Below are positions 6,964 through 34,104 of a stretch of DNA of 34,104 nt, piece by piece (the stretch's first letter is position 1; each line of letters opens with the position of its first letter). Location of the stretch: assembly GCA_030837625.1 (NCBI GenBank), contig JAUPKF010000011.1:1-34104 (forward strand). Reading direction: 5' to 3'. The notes beneath the pieces are model-generated. The model saw nothing but the letters and a program-made list of their open reading frames with translations. It was not told where the DNA came from and did not search any database. The position numbers were made by a program, and so were the translations under genes. The DNA is from Patescibacteria group bacterium (GTDB lineage Bacteria > Patescibacteriota > Minisyncoccia > Moranbacterales > UBA2206).

Positions 6964-7128
6964 AATTTCTAATTCACCTAATTACCTAATTCACCTAATA
7001 AAAATTAAAATTACCGAAGGTCAAATTTTAAAAAGTATTACTTATTTGGCATTTGAAATTTAATTTTGCTATTTGAAATTATTGAATTTTATTAGGTGAA
7101 TTAGAAATTAGACAATTAGGTGAATTTT
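6964..7128. repeat. AATTCACCT-type AT-rich repeat element, copy 1
   Basis: An intergenic AT-rich element bounded by inverted arms. The left arm (about 6964-7003) contains tandem near-9-mers of AATTCACCT; the right arm (about 7088-7128) contains the complementary AATTAGGTG motif. A 40-bp stretch of the left arm is identical to the copy beginning near 17079. The right arm overlaps the end of the downstream GT4 gene and supplies its last codons and TAA stop. Confidence 0.8.
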
Positions 7129-8225
7129 TTATGATTCTCCATCTCCTTCTCTACATATTCCCTTATCTTATCCTTAAAAACCTCTTTGTCAAATTTCAAT
7201 ACGGTTGAGCGGATGTATTCGGGATCGAATTCGCAACCGTCCATCTTTTTCACCGCTCCGATGATATCCTCCGGGGTCTGGCGTTCGAAAAATATTCCCG
7301 TCTTTCCCTCTTCCATATGCTCGGGAATATCCCCGCCACGATACGCGATCACCGGCCGCCCGGAAGCCATTGCTTCAATGGCGGTAATTCCGAAATCCTC
7401 TTCTTGAGGAAAGATAAACGCCCGACACTCCGCGTAATGCTTGAACAGCTCCCGCTCCGAAAGCCTGCCCATGAATTCAATGTTACCGCTATCCCCGGCT
7501 ATTTTTTTCAGCCGCGCCAGCTCAGGGCCTCGGCCGATGATCTTTAACTTCAATCCGGATTTCTTAAACGCTTCAATGGCGATATCAAAACGTTTGTAGG
7601 CCATCAGTCTTCCCACCAACAGAAAAAAATCGCCGGTCTTTTTACCGGCATAGAAATTTTCTAAATTCACCGGCGGATTAATTACGATCGAATCCCTTTT
7701 ATAATATTTTTTGATCCTTCTCGAAATGAACTTGGAATTAGCGACAATCTTATCCGGCCGATCGGCGCTGACTCTATCCCAAACCCGGATATAATTCATA
7801 AAAAAAGGCACTATTCTTTTTATAAAGCCGGGAAAATAAAAATCCTGGGTGTATTTTTGGCAATCATCCCAAGCAAAGCGCATCGGAGTATGCATATAGC
7901 AAATATGCAAAGTGTCCGGACCGGTGATGATTCCCTTGGCGAAGCTGGAAGAATCGGAAAGGACAATGTCATAGTTGGAAGAGTCAAAGCTTTCTATCGC
8001 CGACGGCATCAGAGGGGGGAATATTCGGTGTCTTGTTTTGGTAAAGGGGATTTTTTGCAAAAAAGATGTCCTGATTTTTTTGTCCGCGAACTTTTCGCGC
8101 ATTAGGTTTTTGTCGTAAACCAGGGTATGAATCGGCGCGTTTGGCCAAAGTTCGCAAAAACACTCCAGCACCCTTTCGGCTCCGCCGTATTGGACAAGAT
8201 AATCATGGACAAGCGCAATCTTCAT
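7116..8225 (-). CDS. Glycosyltransferase family 4 (GT-B fold)
   Basis: A 369-residue GT4 transferase beginning MKIALVHDYLVQYGGAERVL, a common start for mannosyl/rhamnosyl-type GT4 enzymes. The acceptor side includes HICYMHTPMRFAWD; the donor domain begins near DFFLLVGRLMAYKRFDIAI, and the catalytic EX7E-type motif is in QEEDFGITAIEAMASGRPV. The final residues (KKFT) and the stop codon come from the AATTCACCT repeat element. The start codon is 2 bp from an ATTCG palindromic repeat, so no Shine-Dalgarno sequence is available. Probable role is surface-polysaccharide assembly with the neighbouring WcaJ-like enzyme. Confidence 0.92.
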   Translation of the reverse strand: MKIALVHDYLVQYGGAERVLECFCELWPNAPIHTLVYDKNLMREKFADKKIRTSFLQKIPFTKTRHRIFPPLMPSAIESFDSSNYDIVLSDSSSFAKGIITGPDTLHICYMHTPMRFAWDDCQKYTQDFYFPGFIKRIVPFFMNYIRVWDRVSADRPDKIVANSKFISRRIKKYYKRDSIVINPPVNLENFYAGKKTGDFFLLVGRLMAYKRFDIAIEAFKKSGLKLKIIGRGPELARLKKIAGDSGNIEFMGRLSERELFKHYAECRAFIFPQEEDFGITAIEAMASGRPVIAYRGGDIPEHMEEGKTGIFFERQTPEDIIGAVKKMDGCEFDPEYIRSTVLKFDKEVFKDKIREYVEKEMENHKKFT

Positions 8226-8226
8226 A

Positions 8227-8357
8227 TCGATACGAATCTGCGAATGAATCCGAATCTACGAATTCACAAATAAAGTTACTCAGACAGGCACATTCGTAGT
8301 GCGCTATTCGGATGCTTTTATTCGTGAATTCGAATGCATTCGTTGATTCGAATCGCG
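8227..8357. repeat. ATTCG/CGAAT palindromic element, copy 1
   Basis: A long imperfect palindrome made of CGAAT/ATTCG units. Its left arm begins just 2 bp upstream of the GT4 start codon, and its right arm (ending in GTTGATTCGAATCG) reaches to 1 bp before the stop codon of the WcaJ-like gene. Related copies are at 9780-9868 and 23117-23215, and a half copy lies inside valS at 12016-12058. Confidence 0.85.
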
Positions 8358-8358
8358 A

Positions 8359-9774
8359 TTACAGGTTTCGCCTCTTCCGAAAAAGCACTCCAACTGTTTT
8401 CAGGCATATTTGGATGTCGAGCCAAAGCGACCAGTTTTCTATATAAAACAAATCCAGCTTGTATTCATCTTCAAAATCCAAATCCGACCGGCCAGACACT
8501 TGCGCCATTCCGGTAAGCCCCGGTTTTATGGTCAAAAGCCGCCGATGGTATTCCATGTACTTTTCCACTTCTCTTTTTTGATGCGGTCGCGGACCGACCA
8601 AGCTCATTGTCCCGAAAAGAGCATTGAAAAATTGCGGCAATTCGTCAATAGAATATTTTTCGATAAAATTCCCTACCCTGGTCTTTCGCGGATCTTTTTT
8701 GATTTTGTAGAGCGGACCCTTCCTCACGCTCTGATTTTTAATAAGCTCCTGCTCAAGCTTCAACGCTTCTTGCAATTTAGGATTATCTTTAGAAATACAA
8801 AACTCGTCTTTGAAATATCGGAACTTGTAAACAAAAAATTCTTTCCCGCCGCTACCTATCCGCTTGTTCTTGTAAATTATCGGCCCACAACTGTCCAGCT
8901 TGATGGCGACGGCCGTGGCAAGCATTATCGGAGAAGTGACGATTATTCCCAAAATGGAAGCGACAATATCAAAAACTCTTTTGGAAATTCTCCCCCAGCC
9001 GTCCAGAGGCGTACTCTTCACCTCAATAAGAGGTTGTCCCGAAAAAACTCCCAGCTCAAATTTCGACGTCTGCAGTGTGGTCGGAATGTATTTGTATTTA
9101 ACATTGTGGATAGCGCAATAGTCGATCAGCTTTTCCTGCTCGTCATCCGTCACCGACGGATTGCAAAGGATAATCTCATCGATTCCTTTTTCTTGCCTGA
9201 TTCCTTTTATCGTATGCACACTGGCTGTGTCGATCTGATCAATCACTTTATAGCCCAAATTTTTATTGTTTTTGATGATGGCAGAAATCGTGTTCATCCG
9301 ACCGTTTCTGCCAATCAAAAGCACCCGATGCACTCCGACGCCGCGGTTTCGCAGCAGCCATTTTTGAATAAGCTGGATCAGATAGCGAGCAAGGACGACA
9401 TAAAAAGTCGCCAATCCCCAGGCGGCTAAAATAATGAAACGGGAAGAAAACCATTCCCGCTTTAAAAATATAGCAACGATGATAATAACCAGTCCAATGG
9501 AAGTGGCTGTGAAAATCTTGAGCGTTTCTTTCCAGAATTTTCGAGTCGACCGGATATCATAGAGGCCCTCCAAAGCGTAAATTAGCAAAAAAAGCGGCGC
9601 CACCATCAGGGCGATTTTCAAATAGACATCGAAAGGGAAATTGTACAGCTTGGGTTTAAGCGCCAGAATTTCGGGAACATTTCTGATAGCAAAAGCCGAA
9701 ATGGCTGCCAAAATTATCATGGCAAAATCAACCGGTACCTGCAAAGCGCTGAAAAAAAGTTCCGATCTCTTCAT
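8359..9774 (-). CDS. Polyprenyl glycosylphosphotransferase (WcaJ/WbaP-type initiating sugar transferase)
   Basis: A 471-residue enzyme that transfers sugar-1-phosphate to undecaprenyl phosphate, the first committed step of exopolysaccharide repeat-unit synthesis. The N-terminal part has about four membrane helices (to about residue 130), then a CoA-binding-like Rossmann region (VLLIGRNGRMNTIS). The C-terminal catalytic domain starts at WGRISKRVFDIVASILG and holds KFRYF, YSIDELPQFFNALFG, MSLVGPRP and IKPGLTGMAQVSGRSDLDFE, all hallmarks of the bacterial sugar transferase family. The last residues come just before an ATTCG repeat, and another copy begins 6 bp upstream of the ATG. It fits as the initiator for the GT4/Wzz-like block. 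Confidence 0.95.
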   Translation of the reverse strand: MKRSELFFSALQVPVDFAMIILAAISAFAIRNVPEILALKPKLYNFPFDVYLKIALMVAPLFLLIYALEGLYDIRSTRKFWKETLKIFTATSIGLVIIIVAIFLKREWFSSRFIILAAWGLATFYVVLARYLIQLIQKWLLRNRGVGVHRVLLIGRNGRMNTISAIIKNNKNLGYKVIDQIDTASVHTIKGIRQEKGIDEIILCNPSVTDDEQEKLIDYCAIHNVKYKYIPTTLQTSKFELGVFSGQPLIEVKSTPLDGWGRISKRVFDIVASILGIIVTSPIMLATAVAIKLDSCGPIIYKNKRIGSGGKEFFVYKFRYFKDEFCISKDNPKLQEALKLEQELIKNQSVRKGPLYKIKKDPRKTRVGNFIEKYSIDELPQFFNALFGTMSLVGPRPHQKREVEKYMEYHRRLLTIKPGLTGMAQVSGRSDLDFEDEYKLDLFYIENWSLWLDIQICLKTVGVLFRKRRNL

Positions 9775-9779
9775 ATTAA

Positions 9780-9868
9780 CCGATACGAATTTACGAATTA
9801 TATTCGAATCTACGAATTCACGAATCCCCTATTCGTAGATTCGCATTCATTCGTTGATTCGAATCGGT
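9780..9868. repeat. ATTCG/CGAAT palindromic element, copy 2
   Basis: A compact copy of the same family as 8227-8357. Left arm CGATACGAAT..., right arm ending GTTGATTCGAATCG. It fills the gap between the 3' end of RNase P RNA and the start codon of the WcaJ-like gene (5-bp spacing from the ATG). Confidence 0.85.
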
Positions 9869-9877
9869 TTCAAATAA

Positions 9878-10390
9878 ATATCAAGGTAAATCTGTAAGCC
9901 GGATTCTATCGAGAGCAGTCATTTATCTAGCCCCGATGTTGCCATCGGGGTCAAGCGGCATTTTCCGTAATTACGTAAATTACAGAACACAGCCTTGCAC
10001 TCACGTAAGGATTTAGCCGTTTCACTTCTTATATTGCTATAAGAACTTATCCCATAGGGATACCCCGATTGCTTTCGCATCGGGACGTCTCTGCTCGCAC
10101 CTCTTGGATTACTCCAGACGGGTGTTACCCGCTACGCTTGCCGCGCACAGCGCGGAAACTCAAAATCCTAAGCACCAAATTCCAAATAAATTCAAATTTT
10201 CAAAATCACAATTCTCAAAACTTTTGCTTTTCAGTTTTGAATTTTGGTCATTTGAATTTTGATATTGTTTGATATTTGAGATTTTGGATTTGGGATTTCC
10301 GTGCTACGCACGGCTAAGTGTCCGGACTTTCTTATCAGCCTCTAAACTTGGCGTAAAAAGACTGATCAACTGCTCGATTTACCTTGATAT
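9878..10390 (-). ncRNA. rnpB: RNase P RNA (bacterial type) with an internal repeat insertion
   Basis: Catalytic RNA of RNase P, which matures tRNA 5' ends. Read on the minus strand, the ends form a perfect 15-bp P1 helix (10376-10390 with 9878-9892). The 5' conserved segment AAGAAAGTCCGGAC, the GCGGGTAACACCCG hairpin, a GTGCGAGCAGAG segment and GTGAAACGGC follow in order. The 3' segment contains GATAAATGACTGCTCTC and AGAATCCGGCTTAC, as in the universal bacterial consensus. The full span is 513 nt, longer than the usual 350-400, because about 140 nt of AT-rich repeat (10157-10298) sits between the AAAGTCCGGAC segment and the GGTAAC hairpin. The assignment is firm; whether the insertion is retained in the mature RNA is unknown. 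Confidence 0.95.
10157..10298. repeat. AT-rich inverted-repeat insertion inside rnpB
   Basis: About 140 nt of AT-rich sequence between two short GC-rich hairpins of RNase P RNA (10141-10155 and 10299-10313). Its two halves are imperfect inverted repeats built on TTTGAATTTTG-like words. Positions 10175-10196 are identical, on the opposite strand, to 33940-33961 inside murB, which shows a dispersed repeat family. Confidence 0.82.
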
Positions 10391-10462
10391 CTGCCTAAAA
10401 CAAGCCATTTTTTAAAAAACTCCAACACCCCAATCATAGCATAGATATTACAACCTGTCCAT

Positions 10463-10500
10463 AAAAAAAGCGGCTCGGCATACTCTGTACGCCTCACCGC
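10463..10500 (-). terminator. Intrinsic terminator of the three-gene small operon
   Basis: On the minus strand a 14-position stem with two central mismatches and a 3-nt loop (10470-10500) is followed by seven T residues (10463-10469). It lies just after the 51-residue gene and before rnpB. Confidence 0.8.
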
Positions 10501-10509
10501 CCGAACTGT

Positions 10510-10665
10510 TCATATTGCACCTCCTATATTCTTTCGACTAGCAGCAATTTCTTGTTTCATCTCCCGATCCAGTTTCCTGTTATCCAACCAAAGCCACATC
10601 GCGAGACCCGCTAGGATCAACGTCGGGACGACAACAAGAGAAAAAAGAAAATATCCTTTCAACAT
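10510..10665 (-). CDS. Small single-pass membrane protein, unknown function
   Basis: A 51-residue protein read directly from the sequence: start MLKGYFLFSLVVVPTLIL, one membrane helix at about 5-28, then a charged tail (DNRKLDREMKQEIAASRK). The ATG at 10665 has a strong Shine-Dalgarno sequence (GGGAGG) 7 nt upstream. It starts 19 bp after the preceding gene and is followed at once by an intrinsic terminator, so it is the last gene of a three-gene operon. I do not recognise a family. The length, good ribosome binding site and charged tail support a real small membrane protein. Confidence 0.72.
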   Translation of the reverse strand: MLKGYFLFSLVVVPTLILAGLAMWLWLDNRKLDREMKQEIAASRKNIGGAI

Positions 10666-11528: not shown

Positions 11529-14180
11529 TCATCCCAAATTCTTCAAAAGTTCTTTTTGCGTTTTTATTTTTTCCCCATACTCGACAAGCTTAATTTTATT
11601 TTGCGCAACGATAACTTTCGGCGCGCTTTCAAGAAACTTTTTGTTTTTAAGCAAGCCTTCGGTTTTGATTGCCAACGTTTCCAGGTCTTGTATTTCTTTT
11701 CGCAAACGCGCTTTCTCTTTTTCCATATCGACAAACTCGGCAACATCCAAAACTATTTCCATTTTCCTAGCCGACACCGCGATGCCCTTGGCGGACTGTC
11801 CGTCAAATTTAATTCGCGCCAGCCTTTCGATAAGTTCAATGTTTTTTACACTTTTACCATAAGCGGAAATAACCACACCCGGCGCGATACGATAACTTGA
11901 ACGCAGATTTCTTATTTTAGTGATCATTTCCTGGAGCGTTTCGAATTCTTTTTCGGCTTTTTTGTCAACCAACTTCTTATCCGCCACCGGCCACTTCTCC
12001 ACCATCAACAGCTTGTTTTTTATTCGTGAATTCGGATTCATTCGTTGATTCGAATCGGTATAAATTTTTTCCGTTACAAACGGCGCAAAAGGGTGGGATA
12101 ATTTAAGTACATACCCGAGTACGTACCCGAGTACGTTCCAATTTCTTTCAACCTTGCTGGTTTCCACATACCAATCCGCCAAATCGTTCCAAATAAAATT
12201 TTGCAGCTTTTCGCCAGCCAGAGAAAATCTGTAACTATCCAAATCGTCAGTAACCTCTTTTATCAAAATATTAAGCCGACTCACAATCCACCTGTCCGCG
12301 AGAGTTTTTATATTTCTTCTATCCAACTTATCAACCAGCTTAAAATCAGGGCAAGCCGTCACCGCGTAGCGGTATATATTCCAAAGCTTCGTCACAAAGT
12401 TTCTGAAACTGGAGATTTTATCTTCCGACAATCGCATATCGTTTCCCGTGGTGGAACCGACAAGAAGCGACAACCTCACCGCGTCGGTCCCGAAAAGATT
12501 AATCATATCAACCGGATTGATCCCATTGCCCTTGGATTTGGACATTTTTTTGCCGAATTTATCCAAGACCATTCCATGGAGATAAACATTTTCAAAAGGA
12601 ACTTCCCCCGTCGCGAAAAGCGACATCATAATCATCCGCGATACCCAAAGCGTGATAATTTCATAACCCGTTTCCAAAACTTGCGTCGGATGAAACTTTT
12701 TGAGATCTCCCGATTTTTTATTTTTCTTAAAATTATCAGGCCAGCCTAAGGTCGAAAACGTCCACATTCCCGAACTGAACCAAGTATCCAGCGTATCCTG
12801 ATCTTGCACCCACCCTTTGCCTTTTGGAGGATTTACCCCCACATAAATCTCCCCCTCGCTTCGCGTTCCACATTCCACGTTCCGCGTTTTATACCAAACC
12901 GGAATTTCATGCCCGAACCAAATTTGCCGGCTGATGCACCAGTCATGCAGGTTCTCCATCCAGTCGGTATAACGCTTGGTAAAACGAAAGGGAATAAACT
13001 TGATTTTCTTTTTCCTGGCGACTTCCAGCGCTTTTTCCTTGAGAGATTTGTTTCCCAGCCTTTTTATCTTTTTATCCACCGCCACAAACCACTGCTTGGA
13101 AGGAAGCGGCTCGATGGCAGTTCCGCAACGGTAACAAACCGAAAGGTTATTGTTTATTTCTTCTTCTTTCTCCAAAAGGTTTCGATTTTTGAGTTCCGCG
13201 ACAATCATTTCCCGCGCTTCCAGCGCCGTTTTTCCGGAAAATTTTCCAAACCCCGAACGAATGTTTCCGTCTTCATCGATTACTTTCATAATATTGAGCT
13301 TGTTCTCCTCGGCCATCTTCCAGTCCGCCATCGAGTGAGCCGGCGTCACGCCCAGCGCTCCGGTTCCAAAATCCTTGTCCACCTCCCGATCGGAAAATAC
13401 TTTTATGAGAAGCTGGGTTCCCAAAAAATCAGCCTCGAAAATTTCTCCAACGAACTTCGCGTATCTTTTGTCTTTCGGGTTGACCGCCACCGCCGTATCG
13501 CCCAGTTTCGTTTCCGGCCTCGTTGTCGCGATGGAAATTGGAAAATTCTTGTCATATTTGAACGTATATAATTTCGTTTTTTGCTCTTGGTATTCCAGCT
13601 CGTCGTCAGCCAATGTGGACTTGCATCTCGGACACCAATTCACTATTCTCTCTCCCCGATAGATCACGCCTTCTTTATACATATCCACAAACATTTTCGC
13701 CACCGCTTTTTTTCTCGCCTCGTCCAGAGTAAAAGCTTCCCGCGACCAATCCAATGACGCGCCCATTTTTCGAGTTTGGCTGAGAATCGTCGCTTGGGTA
13801 GTCTTGAGAAACTTCCAAACTTCTTTCAAAAATTTTTCTTTCCCCAAATCCTGGCGCTTGAGTCCTTTTTCTTTCAATAACTTTTTCTCTACAACGTTTT
13901 GCGTGGCAATGGCCGCGTGATCCGTCCCGGGAATCCAAAGCGTCCGGTATCCTTTCATCCTGTGGAACCGGATCAAAAGATCCTCGATCGCCAGCATCGA
14001 CGAATGGCCCAAGTGAAGTTTGTCGGTAATGTTGGGCGGCGGAAGAACAATCGTATAGGATTTCGCGTTTTTTGGCAATTTCAGATTATCAGGATTAAAA
14101 AACCCGCTCTTTTCCCAAGCGTCATAAATCTCATCCTCGTATTTATTCGGTTCGTAAGTTTTTGGTATTTCCTTTTTCAT
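11529..14180 (-). CDS. valS: Valyl-tRNA synthetase
   Basis: Class I aminoacyl-tRNA synthetase that charges tRNA-Val in the cytoplasm; 883 residues, normal for the family. The N-terminal Rossmann core has the HIGH-type motif (PNITDKLHLGHSSMLA, about residues 50-62). The CP1 editing domain contains TTRPETKLGDTAVAVNP, a zinc-type CPRC and CYRCGT follow, then LDTWFSSGMWTFSTLGWP and the KMSKS loop (GKKMSKSKGNGINPVD). A C-terminal coiled coil is typical of ValRS. Three anomalies appear in frame: a half ATTCG palindromic repeat at about residues 708-722, a 12-nt tandem duplication giving VLGYVLGY at about 684-691, and an extra segment near 431-441. It probably shares an operon with the PheRS gene upstream. 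No clear Shine-Dalgarno sequence. Confidence 0.97.
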   Translation of the reverse strand: MKKEIPKTYEPNKYEDEIYDAWEKSGFFNPDNLKLPKNAKSYTIVLPPPNITDKLHLGHSSMLAIEDLLIRFHRMKGYRTLWIPGTDHAAIATQNVVEKKLLKEKGLKRQDLGKEKFLKEVWKFLKTTQATILSQTRKMGASLDWSREAFTLDEARKKAVAKMFVDMYKEGVIYRGERIVNWCPRCKSTLADDELEYQEQKTKLYTFKYDKNFPISIATTRPETKLGDTAVAVNPKDKRYAKFVGEIFEADFLGTQLLIKVFSDREVDKDFGTGALGVTPAHSMADWKMAEENKLNIMKVIDEDGNIRSGFGKFSGKTALEAREMIVAELKNRNLLEKEEEINNNLSVCYRCGTAIEPLPSKQWFVAVDKKIKRLGNKSLKEKALEVARKKKIKFIPFRFTKRYTDWMENLHDWCISRQIWFGHEIPVWYKTRNVECGTRSEGEIYVGVNPPKGKGWVQDQDTLDTWFSSGMWTFSTLGWPDNFKKNKKSGDLKKFHPTQVLETGYEIITLWVSRMIMMSLFATGEVPFENVYLHGMVLDKFGKKMSKSKGNGINPVDMINLFGTDAVRLSLLVGSTTGNDMRLSEDKISSFRNFVTKLWNIYRYAVTACPDFKLVDKLDRRNIKTLADRWIVSRLNILIKEVTDDLDSYRFSLAGEKLQNFIWNDLADWYVETSKVERNWNVLGYVLGYVLKLSHPFAPFVTEKIYTDSNQRMNPNSRIKNKLLMVEKWPVADKKLVDKKAEKEFETLQEMITKIRNLRSSYRIAPGVVISAYGKSVKNIELIERLARIKFDGQSAKGIAVSARKMEIVLDVAEFVDMEKEKARLRKEIQDLETLAIKTEGLLKNKKFLESAPKVIVAQNKIKLVEYGEKIKTQKELLKNLG
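12016..12058. repeat. Half ATTCG palindromic repeat inside valS
   Basis: This segment matches the right arm of the intergenic element at 8316-8356 at about 38 of 41 positions, including TTATTCGTGAATTCG and GTTGATTCGAATCG. Here it is translated in frame as part of ValRS (about TDSNQRMNPNSRIKN) between the normal HPFAPFVTEKI and VEKWP segments. Confidence 0.85.
12107..12136. repeat. 12-nt in-frame tandem repeat in valS
   Basis: GTACATACCCGA (12107-12118) is followed by GTACGTACCCGA (12119-12130) and then GTACGT. On the coding strand this adds one extra VLGY unit before the conserved LKLSHPF segment of ValRS. The unit contains the palindrome GTACGTAC. Confidence 0.7.
12857..12889. repeat. Probable repeat-derived insert in valS
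   Basis: Internally repetitive sequence built on CGTTCCACATTCCACGTTCC. It codes for roughly RNVECGTRS between the conserved IPVWY and EIYVG segments of ValRS, where other ValRS enzymes are about nine residues shorter. It is repetitive within itself, but no second copy occurs in this window. Confidence 0.5.
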
Positions 14181-17076: not shown

Positions 17077-17077
17077 A

Positions 17078-17337
17078 AATTTCTAATTCACCTAATTACC
17101 TAATTCACCTAATAAAATTTCAAAGGAAAAATAGTGAAATAAAATGTCCAATGACAAATACAAAATTTTTAATTCGACATTGGGAATTGTATTTGGACTT
17201 TGGTTATTTTACTTTTTATTAGGTTCACCCCGTTAAATAACCCTAACTTTATTAAACGGCTGTTGGATTATTCGACTTATTTTGTTAGAACTATTTAACG
17301 GGGTCAATTAGGTAATTAGACAATTAGGTGAATTTTT
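17078..17337. repeat. AATTCACCT-type AT-rich repeat element, copy 2, with nested insertion
   Basis: The secD-secF gap is filled by this element. The left arm (17079-17118) is identical over 40 bp to the copy at 6965. The right arm (about 17305-17337) carries AATTAGGTAATTAGACAATTAGGTG. A separate 76-bp hairpin element (17228-17303) interrupts it. The centre is AT-rich with weak inverted symmetry. Confidence 0.82.
17228..17303. mobile_element. Candidate MITE-like 76-bp element with 12-bp terminal inverted repeats
   Basis: CCCCGTTAAATA (17228-17239) and TATTTAACGGGG (17292-17303) are perfect terminal inverted repeats; CTAAC and GTTAG extend the pairing after a 3-nt internal loop. Both ends are flanked by TCA, a possible 3-bp target duplication. 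The element splits the surrounding AATTCACCT repeat. No coding sequence inside. It could instead be a structured RNA. Confidence 0.55.
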
Positions 17338-23116: not shown

Positions 23117-23215
23117 CCGATCCGAATCTGCGAATAAATGCGAATTCACGAATCTACGAACGAATACTTCCAGTTTTATTCGTAGATTCGGATGCATTCG
23201 TTGATTCGAATCGCG
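23117..23215. repeat. ATTCG/CGAAT palindromic element, copy 3
   Basis: A full copy of the family at 8227-8357 and 9780-9868, with a central TTCCAGTTTTATTCG segment and right end GTTGATTCGAATCGCG. It exactly fills the gap between the dehydrogenase stop codon (23216) and the fusion-gene start codon (23115). Confidence 0.87.
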
Positions 23216-33414: not shown

Positions 33415-34104
33415 TTAGAAACCCACGTATTGCACTTCTTCTTTCAACTCCACCCCCAACTCGTCTCTTACTTTGGTTTTTATATAACTCGCCAGCATCA
33501 CCACGTCTTGCGCTTTGGCACCGCCCAAATTTACTACAAAATTGCAATGCTTTTCGCTCACCGCCGCCCCGCCGATTTTCTTCCCGCGCAGTCCCGCCTC
33601 GTCAATCAGCCAACCGGCCGGAATTTTCCCGTCACGACTGCTGCAACCGGCGTCTTTTTCAAATTTTTTTATAAGCTCCGGATTTTTGACTGTCGGATTT
33701 TGAAAAAAACTTCCCGCGCTCCGGTCTTGCGGCACTTTCTCCGAGCGCTTTTTTATTATTTCTCTAATTTTATTTTCAATTTCCGCCTTCTCCCTTTTCT
33801 CCAATTTTATCACAACCGACAAAATTATTGAATTCGGATTTTGCTTAAAAATAGAATCGCGGTAGAAGAATTCACATTGCGGTAAATCGTAATTGGTAAT
33901 TTTTAATTCGGAGCTGGCTTTAGCTTTTGAATTTTGAATTTTGAATTTATTTGGAATTTGGAATTTGGAATTTGGAATTTTATTAGGTGAATTAGATGAA
34001 TTAGGTGAATTAGAAATTTCCAAAACCCTCACACTCTCCACGCAATCCCCCATCGAACTCCCATACGCTCCCGCATTCCCCCTCACCGCCCCCCCGACCG
34101 TCCC
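33415..34104 (-). CDS. murB: UDP-N-acetylenolpyruvoylglucosamine reductase MurB, 5' end cut by window edge
   Basis: Flavoenzyme that reduces UDP-GlcNAc-enolpyruvate to UDP-MurNAc in peptidoglycan synthesis. The frame is open to the right edge: GTVGGAVRGNAGAYG (FAD-binding loop) begins at 34104, so the first part (about 100 residues) is missing. Further motifs are CEFFYRDSIFK, DRSAGSFFQNP (active-site serine segment), AGWLIDEAGLRGKKIGG, SEKHCNFVVNLGGA and the C-terminal LKEEVQYVG with the catalytic glutamate. Between GAYG and YRDS there are 65 residues where related MurB enzymes such as that of Bacillus have about 30; the extra part is encoded by AT-rich repeats. The internal GTG at 34086 is not the start. 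Confidence 0.94.
   Translation of the reverse strand, partial: GTVGGAVRGNAGAYGSSMGDCVESVRVLEISNSPNSSNSPNKIPNSKFQIPNKFKIQNSKAKASSELKITNYDLPQCEFFYRDSIFKQNPNSIILSVVIKLEKREKAEIENKIREIIKKRSEKVPQDRSAGSFFQNPTVKNPELIKKFEKDAGCSSRDGKIPAGWLIDEAGLRGKKIGGAAVSEKHCNFVVNLGGAKAQDVVMLASYIKTKVRDELGVELKEEVQYVGF
33921..34020. repeat. AT-rich repeat tract translated inside murB
   Basis: About 100 nt composed of three known pieces: TTTTGAATT triplication, tandem TTTGGAA units, and an AATTAGGTG block ending in AATTTCC. The last block (33980-34018) is the inverted counterpart of the intergenic repeats at 6965 and 17079, and 33940-33961 matches the insertion in rnpB. It stays in frame with MurB. Confidence 0.83.

What the first reader, a model, noticed from the sequence alone, without database searches (positions are those of the whole stretch)
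10157..10298. Repeat insertion inside RNase P RNA, sharing 22 nt exactly with murB
About 140 nt of AT-rich inverted repeat separates the AAAGTCCGGAC segment from the GGTAAC hairpin in rnpB. Positions 10175-10196 equal the reverse complement of 33940-33961 in murB. One dispersed element thus occurs in an essential ribozyme and an essential enzyme gene. It could form an extra helix, or be removed from the RNA.
Basis: partly seen in the sequence, partly recalled or inferred. Interest (0 to 1): 0.75.

Follow-up and report, generated by a model that had tools for sequence, protein, structure and literature searches.

The report
IVS-like palindrome inside RNase P RNA
The single RNase P RNA gene of this tiny bacterium (a relative of Candidatus Moranbacteria) carries a 173-base hairpin-forming insert whose only close twin in the genome sits in the 23S ribosomal RNA gene, at a spot where other bacteria carry RNA inserts that are cut out, so an rRNA-type 'intervening sequence' appears to have spread to a second essential ribozyme.

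Summary
rnpB (minus strand, about 9877-10391) is interrupted by 173 nt (10141-10313), and 22 nt of it match murB exactly. The insert is an AT-rich palindrome with a self-complementary GC mini-hairpin at each end. It lies exactly between P5 and P7, both intact. A same-genus relative has the empty site, and most relatives have only a short hairpin there. The AT body belongs to a family of roughly 30-40 copies in the genome, including an in-frame part in murB. The capped form occurs only twice: in rnpB and in the loop of helix 45 of 23S rRNA, a classic intervening-sequence (IVS) site. Across 53 related genomes, all 20 perfectly self-complementary caps found lie in 16S, 23S or RNase P RNA genes. 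Class-wide, 20 of 27 such places do, against 0 of 10 imperfect-cap controls. Other relatives carry capped or other palindromes in rnpB at J5/7, P12, P15/16 and P3. Best reading: an IVS-like element of structural RNA genes sitting at the P5.1 position of RNase P RNA. It folds outward, leaves the core intact, and may be cut by RNase III without religation. Cutting is inferred, not shown. New variant of a known kind.

The parts
9877..10391 (-). rnpB, RNase P RNA (class A type), interrupted; ends approximate (P1 strands pair around 9883-9892 and 10376-10391)
   Evidence: RF00010 match E=1e-24 over 9883-10194; inverted repeat I14 9867-9892/10376-10401 is P1; aligns with rnpB of 48 relatives
10141..10313 (-). 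IVS-like capped palindromic element, 173 nt
   Evidence: absent from same-genus G001; core without it is 83% identical to G001 rnpB; folds as one hairpin, z=-6.6; 85% identical to the copy in 23S rRNA
10299..10313 (-). 5' GC cap CCGTGCGTAGCACGG, a self-complementary mini-hairpin
   Evidence: sequence; pattern found only here and in 23S in the genome
10141..10155 (-). 3' GC cap CCGCGCTGTGCGCGG, a self-complementary mini-hairpin that also pairs with the 5' cap
   Evidence: sequence and fold
10156..10298 (-). AT-rich inverted-repeat body, member of a dispersed family
   Evidence: 73 hits on both strands (roughly 30-40 places) in the own genome
10175..10196 (+). 22 nt shared exactly with murB
10317..10320 (-). 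P5 5' strand CACT, pairs 4/4 with 9998-10001
9998..10001 (-). P5 3' strand AGTG
10133..10137 (-). P7 5' strand GCGTA, pairs 5/5 with 10003-10007
10003..10007 (-). P7 3' strand TACGT
10118..10132 (-). P8 hairpin GCGGGTAACACCCGT
33931..33980 (-). partial, uncapped relative of the AT body, in frame inside murB
   Evidence: 82% identity over 51 nt, E=2.3e-7; MurB loop 61 aa here versus 27-37 aa in other genera
33415..34086 (-). murB, C-terminal part (runs off the contig end)
   Evidence: PF02873 match E=6.2e-34 at 33424-33783

Best explanation
The insert is an intervening-sequence-like (IVS-like) mobile palindrome of structural RNA genes. It has inserted in the junction J5/7 of the RNase P RNA, where B-type RNase P RNAs carry helix P5.1 and where relatives of this bacterium carry a short variable hairpin. 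In the transcript the two GC caps pair and the AT body zips up into one long hairpin that leaves the core between P5 and P7, so the conserved catalytic core can fold as usual (position, pairing and fold computed; function inferred). As with 23S rRNA IVSs, the stem is probably cut by RNase III without religation, leaving a two-piece but active RNase P RNA. I put this cutting step at about 50%; if it is not cut, the insert stays as a harmless extra helix. The two capped copies of the genome share asymmetric caps, so the element has probably moved or been copied between the 23S rRNA and RNase P RNA genes; the mechanism of movement is unknown.
For: Position: P5 4/4 and P7 5/5 paired on either side of the insert; J5/7 is 6-39 nt in 42 of 48 genomes measured. 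Recent: same-genus G001 has an empty site and the rest of rnpB is 83% identical. Fold: one hairpin, z=-6.6, also intact in the fold of the full-length RNA. IVS link: the only other capped copy in the genome lies in the helix-45 loop of 23S rRNA (RF02541 alignment), 85% identical with nearly identical ends. 19 of 28 readable genomes have 78-183 nt inserts at the same helix, several of the capped AT-rich type. Restriction: all 20 perfectly self-complementary caps in 53 genomes lie in 16S, 23S or RNase P RNA genes. In 285 class members 20 of 27 such places do, versus 0 of 10 imperfect-cap controls. RNase III is encoded (G000:C18:2264-2650). Helix-45 IVS of Coxiella is excised by RNase III and leaves functional fragmented 23S rRNA (PMC4990558). 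Short rRNA inserts of CPR at known IVS sites were judged probable IVSs (PMC11270868).
Against: No RNA data: neither cutting nor activity is shown. A few capped places lie outside RNA genes (L308 intergenic, L300 beside a tRNA). The AT body is also a general dispersed family with copies between genes and in ORFs, so the RNA-gene link rests on the capped form. The stem has mismatches and small internal loops, so RNase III cleavage is not assured.
Confidence: 0.78

Rival explanations
1. Permanent extra helix: the insert is transcribed, never cut, and simply extends the P5.1-like hairpin, as helix extensions do in other RNase P RNAs.
For: Relatives keep short hairpins at the same place; CPR RNase P RNAs with large helix extensions are reported (PMC8172020); the MFE of the full RNA keeps a single outward hairpin.
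Against: The homologous helix-45 site is one where known IVSs are cut by RNase III (PMC4990558); the stem base (11 bp, one mismatch, 7 bp) is long enough to be an RNase III substrate; RNase III is present.
Confidence: 0.4
2. Chance landing of an ordinary dispersed AT-rich repeat (MITE- or RPE-like) in rnpB, with no special link to RNA genes; the GC caps arose or were kept afterwards as a clamp.
For: Roughly 30-40 related AT-rich copies in the genome, most not spanned by an ORF, about six inside open reading frames; palindromes in genes are known from Rickettsia.
Against: Two unrelated sites (rnpB and 23S) share the same asymmetric caps; each cap is self-complementary, more than a clamp needs; uncapped copies show no cap remnants in their printed flanks; caps are concentrated in RNA genes.
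Confidence: 0.15
3. A spliced intron (group I, group II or other) removed from the RNA with ligation.
For: CPR rRNA genes often hold group I introns, including this genome's 23S gene.
Against: No intron family match in the insert at gathering score or at E<=1; 173 nt, all one hairpin, no ORF; tip-of-helix location as for IVSs.
Confidence: 0.04
4. Assembly chimera or dead gene: repeats joined two unrelated rnpB halves, or the gene is a pseudogene.
For: AT-rich repeats can break assemblies (G035 rnpB has a run of N at such an element).
Against: P1, P5 and P7 pair across the insert; both halves align with G001; it is the only rnpB in a 98.5%-complete genome; relatives have analogous inserts.
Confidence: 0.03

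Closest known systems
Bacterial 23S rRNA intervening sequences (IVS), helix 9/25/45 type (Salmonella, Coxiella)
   Same: Short stem-forming insert at the tip of a peripheral helix in an essential structural RNA; patchy among relatives; a near-identical element sits at helix 45 in this same genome.
   Different: The host RNA is RNase P RNA, not rRNA; no S23/IVP open reading frame; capped, AT-rich, nested-palindrome anatomy; cutting not shown.
Short rRNA insertion sequences of CPR bacteria (Tsurumaki et al. 2024, PMC11270868)
   Same: Same host group, short (<200 bp) inserts without ORF at IVS sites of 23S rRNA, probably IVSs.
   Different: In the abstract and passages I read that paper covers rRNA only, its main text does not mention RNase P, and no capped element family is described there.
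CPR RNase P RNAs with diverged forms and large helix extensions (Lui et al. 2021, PMC8172020)
   Same: Class-A-like RNase P RNAs of CPR that fall under the Rfam threshold because of extended or missing helices.
   Different: In the section I read, the extensions are not linked to mobile elements or to rRNA inserts.
Rickettsia palindromic elements (RPE)
   Same: Dispersed palindromes that also sit in frame inside protein genes, as the AT body does in murB.
   Different: No sequence relation tested; the capped form here is concentrated in RNA genes.
P5.1 of B-type (Bacillus) RNase P RNA; STRR repeats in cyanobacterial rnpB (both from memory)
   Same: Hairpin between P5 and P7; repetitive DNA inside rnpB.
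   Different: P5.1 is an old conserved helix; STRRs are tandem heptamers, not capped palindromes.

Membership tests
rRNA-type IVS (RNase III-excised, unligated) | Insert at the tip or junction of a peripheral helix of a structural RNA, core preserved | tested here: met
   J5/7 with P5 4/4 and P7 5/5 paired
rRNA-type IVS (RNase III-excised, unligated) | Terminal complementarity giving a long stable stem | tested here: met
   MFE -54.9 kcal/mol, z -6.6
rRNA-type IVS (RNase III-excised, unligated) | Patchy presence among close relatives | tested here: met
   absent in G001, present in short form in G004/G019
rRNA-type IVS (RNase III-excised, unligated) | Located in an rRNA gene | tested here: not met
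   it is in rnpB; its closest genomic relative is in 23S helix 45. Hence 'IVS-like', not filed as an rRNA IVS
rRNA-type IVS (RNase III-excised, unligated) | Excised by RNase III without ligation | not testable with these tools
   RNase III gene present; no RNA data
Bacterial RNase P class A RNA (RF00010) | Conserved core CR-I to CR-V and P1-P4-P5-P7-P8 pairing | tested here: met
   E=1e-24 with all 3' conserved regions; CR-I AAAGTCCGGAC 5' of the insert; sub-threshold score explained by the insert
Group I or group II intron | Match to the intron covariance models | tested here: not met
   no hit in 9700-10600 at E<=1
Rickettsia palindromic element (RPE) | Sequence membership of an RPE family | not tested
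   only the mode (palindrome in frame in murB) was compared
REP/BIME mobilised by Y1 (RAYT) transposase | Same hairpin flanking a Y1 transposase gene | tested here: inconclusive
   two PF01797 genes in the genome; no cap or AT element within the 3.3-kb locus around the better one, L088; the second was not examined

The most novel reading that the evidence does not exclude
In these bacteria a family of small, non-coding capped palindromes targets structural RNA genes as a class (16S, 23S, RNase P RNA, perhaps next to tmRNA). In this genome RNase III cutting of it turns the RNase P RNA into a natural two-piece ribozyme in the cell.
Probability: 0.35. Interest if true: 0.8.

Novelty: new variant of a known kind. 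Interest (0 to 1): 0.62.

Why it matters
IVSs are known as oddities of rRNA genes. Finding the same element type in RNase P RNA, at several helices and in several genera, suggests these elements recognise or are kept in structured RNA genes in general. It helps explain why many CPR RNase P RNAs fall below annotation thresholds and look oddly extended. It also makes testable whether a natural bacterial RNase P RNA works in two pieces, and poses a clear question about how such tiny elements come to lie almost only in structural RNA genes.

Tried and rejected
Rfam at the gathering threshold missed rnpB altogether; the e-value mode found it, and the plant microRNA hits to the hairpin are spurious. 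Group I/II intron: no match. Y1 transposase link: one of two genes examined, no cap or AT element near it. Literature on RNase P RNA with IVS or palindromic elements: nothing relevant in the held library; two older papers on palindromes in Rickettsia and repeats in cyanobacterial rnpB are not held. A first cap pattern was too strict and gave 3 hits, all in RNA genes. Counting a cap as palindromic at 6 of 7 pairs proved too lax, since many chance hits reach 6; I therefore report only the 7-of-7 class, counted by script for the 53-genome set and by eye for the class-wide set. The capped element at tmRNA in G309 turned out to abut its 5' end, not to lie inside. Of the ten fetched imperfect-cap places used as controls, one further fetched place (L326, 6 of 7 pairs) was first meant as a control but lies in 23S rRNA and looks like a genuine cap; it was left out of both counts.

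Full report
WHAT WAS CHECKED. The window is contig C27 of a 966,658-base genome, 98.5% complete. Its nearest named relative by valyl-tRNA synthetase is Candidatus Moranbacteria bacterium RIFOXYA12_FULL_44_15 (74% identity), so it belongs to the CPR/Patescibacteria. The gene rnpB runs on the minus strand. Rfam finds it only below threshold (RF00010, 80.8 bits against 100, E=1e-24) because the model swallowed the insert as 5' sequence. It is the only RNase P RNA match in the genome. The reported 22-nt identity between 10175-10196 and the reverse complement of 33940-33961 is exact, and no shuffled window has the pattern even with 3 mismatches.

THE ELEMENT. Read on the rnpB strand, the insert is CCGTGCGTAGCACGG, then an AT-rich inverted repeat of 143 nt, then CCGCGCTGTGCGCGG: 173 nt at 10313 to 10141. 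Each end cap is self-complementary (6 bp, 3-nt loop) and the two caps also pair with each other. The whole folds as a single hairpin (-54.9 kcal/mol; shuffles -31.3, z -6.6) and keeps this hairpin in the fold of the full-length RNA.

WHERE IN THE RIBOZYME. Flanking pairs were read from the sequence and compared with 48 relatives. P5 is CACT/AGTG (4/4) and P7 is GCGTA/TACGT (5/5) in the window. The same helices are CTCC/GGAG and AGGTA/TACCC in same-genus G001, and CATT/AATG and similar elsewhere, so they vary but keep pairing. The insert lies exactly between the two 5' strands, in J5/7. From established knowledge this is the P5.1 position of B-type RNase P RNA and the P6 position of A-type RNA. 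In 42 of 48 measured genomes J5/7 is 6-39 nt, mostly a short local hairpin. It exceeds 60 nt in six: G000 (this genome, 179), G034 (147), G031 (94), G014 (71), G004 and G019 (67 each). G001 has no insert, and the rest of rnpB is 83% identical. The insert is therefore younger than the genus or was lost in G001, and it is not an old conserved domain.

DISPERSED FAMILY. The AT body has 73 hits on both strands in the own genome, which is roughly 30-40 places. Of 28 copies examined by script, most are not spanned by an ORF, five lie within long open frames, and one is in 23S rRNA. In murB a partial copy is in frame: the loop between GAYGS and YRDS is 61 residues here, 79 in G001 and 27-37 in other genera.

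THE CAPPED FORM AND 23S rRNA. The pattern CCGNGCNNNGCNCGGAAA occurs four times in the genome: the two ends of the rnpB insert, and the two ends of one other element at C13:5672-5837. That element is inside the 23S rRNA gene, in the loop of the hairpin that corresponds to helix 45 (RF02541 alignment; assignment to helix 45 from established knowledge of the E. coli sequence). The two elements are 85% identical over 165 nt, with nearly identical ends and identical 3' caps. Helix 45 is where Coxiella has its IVS, which RNase III excises and which leaves a fragmented functional 23S rRNA (PMC4990558). In 19 of 28 readable genomes this helix holds inserts of 78-183 nt of several kinds, four of them (G000, G008, G010, G052) of the capped AT-rich type.

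RESTRICTION TO RNA GENES. In 53 related genomes the pattern CCNNYGCNNNGCRNNGGAA gave 36 hits; 20 have perfectly self-complementary caps. All 20 lie in structural RNA genes: rnpB (G003, G014, G035, G045, G051) or rRNA (16S in G042; 23S in G003, G008, G010, G020, G051, G052), by coordinates and alignments. In 285 genomes of the class, 27 fetched places have perfect caps (counted by eye from the list). Of these, 17 are in rRNA and 3 in RNase P RNA (L294, L296 with two elements, L298); one abuts the 5' end of tmRNA (L301). Six are elsewhere: a coding gene (L292), two plain terminator-like hairpins (L311, L312), one intergenic complete element (L308), one beside a tRNA (L300) and one unidentified (L297). 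Of ten imperfect-cap controls (L318-L325, L327, L328) none is in an RNA gene. Structural RNA genes are under 1% of such genomes, so the concentration is far beyond chance, although it is not absolute and selection may contribute.

OTHER rnpB INSERTS. Relatives carry capped elements at P15/16 (G003, G014, G051), P12 (L294, L298, and L296 on inspection) and P3 (L296), and unrelated nested palindromes at J5/7 and between P18 and the 3' end (G031, G034, G015, G038, G041, G048). Lui et al. noted CPR RNase P RNAs with large helix extensions that need lowered thresholds (PMC8172020). The present data offer a reason for part of these. Tsurumaki et al. found inserts in 82% of CPR 23S genes and judged short ones at IVS sites to be probable IVSs (PMC11270868). 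RNase P does not occur in that paper's main text.

MECHANISM. Shown by computation: position, preserved core pairing, hairpin, recent origin, twin in 23S helix 45, concentration in RNA genes, presence of an RNase III gene. Inferred: the RNA is functional (single copy, essential gene); the stem is cut by RNase III and not religated (about 50%); the element moved or was copied between RNA genes. Short single-cap hairpins at the same sites in relatives (for example G038 helix 45, G045 P15/16) could be scars of slippage deletion between the palindromic caps; this is a conjecture.

CLASSIFICATION. It works like an IVS and is anatomically the same as an element at a classic IVS site. It is not in rRNA and excision was not tested, so I call it IVS-like and a new variant of a known kind.

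Noticed in passing
G000:C13:6931-7194 (L258): Group I intron (RF00028, 55.2 bits) in the 23S rRNA gene of the window's own genome, in addition to the helix-45 insert.
   Followed up: no
window 8316-8357, 9827-9868, 12018-12059, 23174-23215: A second short repeat family (ATTCGT...GATTCATTCGTTGATTCGAATCG) sits between genes in direct and inverted copies; one lies 3' of rnpB.
   Followed up: no
window 6964-7129, 17077-17337, 33975-34019: A third repeat family (TTCTAATTCACCTAATTACCTAATTCACCTAATAAAA) lies between genes and continues directly from the AT element inside murB.
   Followed up: no
L301 (G309:C7:63532-64154): A short capped palindrome abuts the 5' end of a tmRNA gene (RF00023, E=5.5e-12, below gathering).
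   Followed up: partly
L296 (G253:C69:5704-6626): An RNase P RNA gene with two capped AT-rich elements, one at P3 and one at P12, the first holding a further GC palindrome inside.
   Followed up: partly
L041, L043, L044, L009, L045 (rnpB of G015, G031, G038, G041, G048): Large nested palindromes between CR-V and the 3' end of rnpB or in P12, several with CCAATTTTGT...ACAAAATTGG mini-hairpins, a different family from the capped one.
   Followed up: partly
L099 (G001 murB): The same-genus murB has an even longer insertion (79 residues) at the same loop, of different sequence, so this loop tolerates repeated insertions.
   Followed up: no
L257 (G020:C5:13500-14010): A capped AT-rich element apparently lies inside another large insertion of the 23S gene, upstream of model position 2665.
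   Followed up: no
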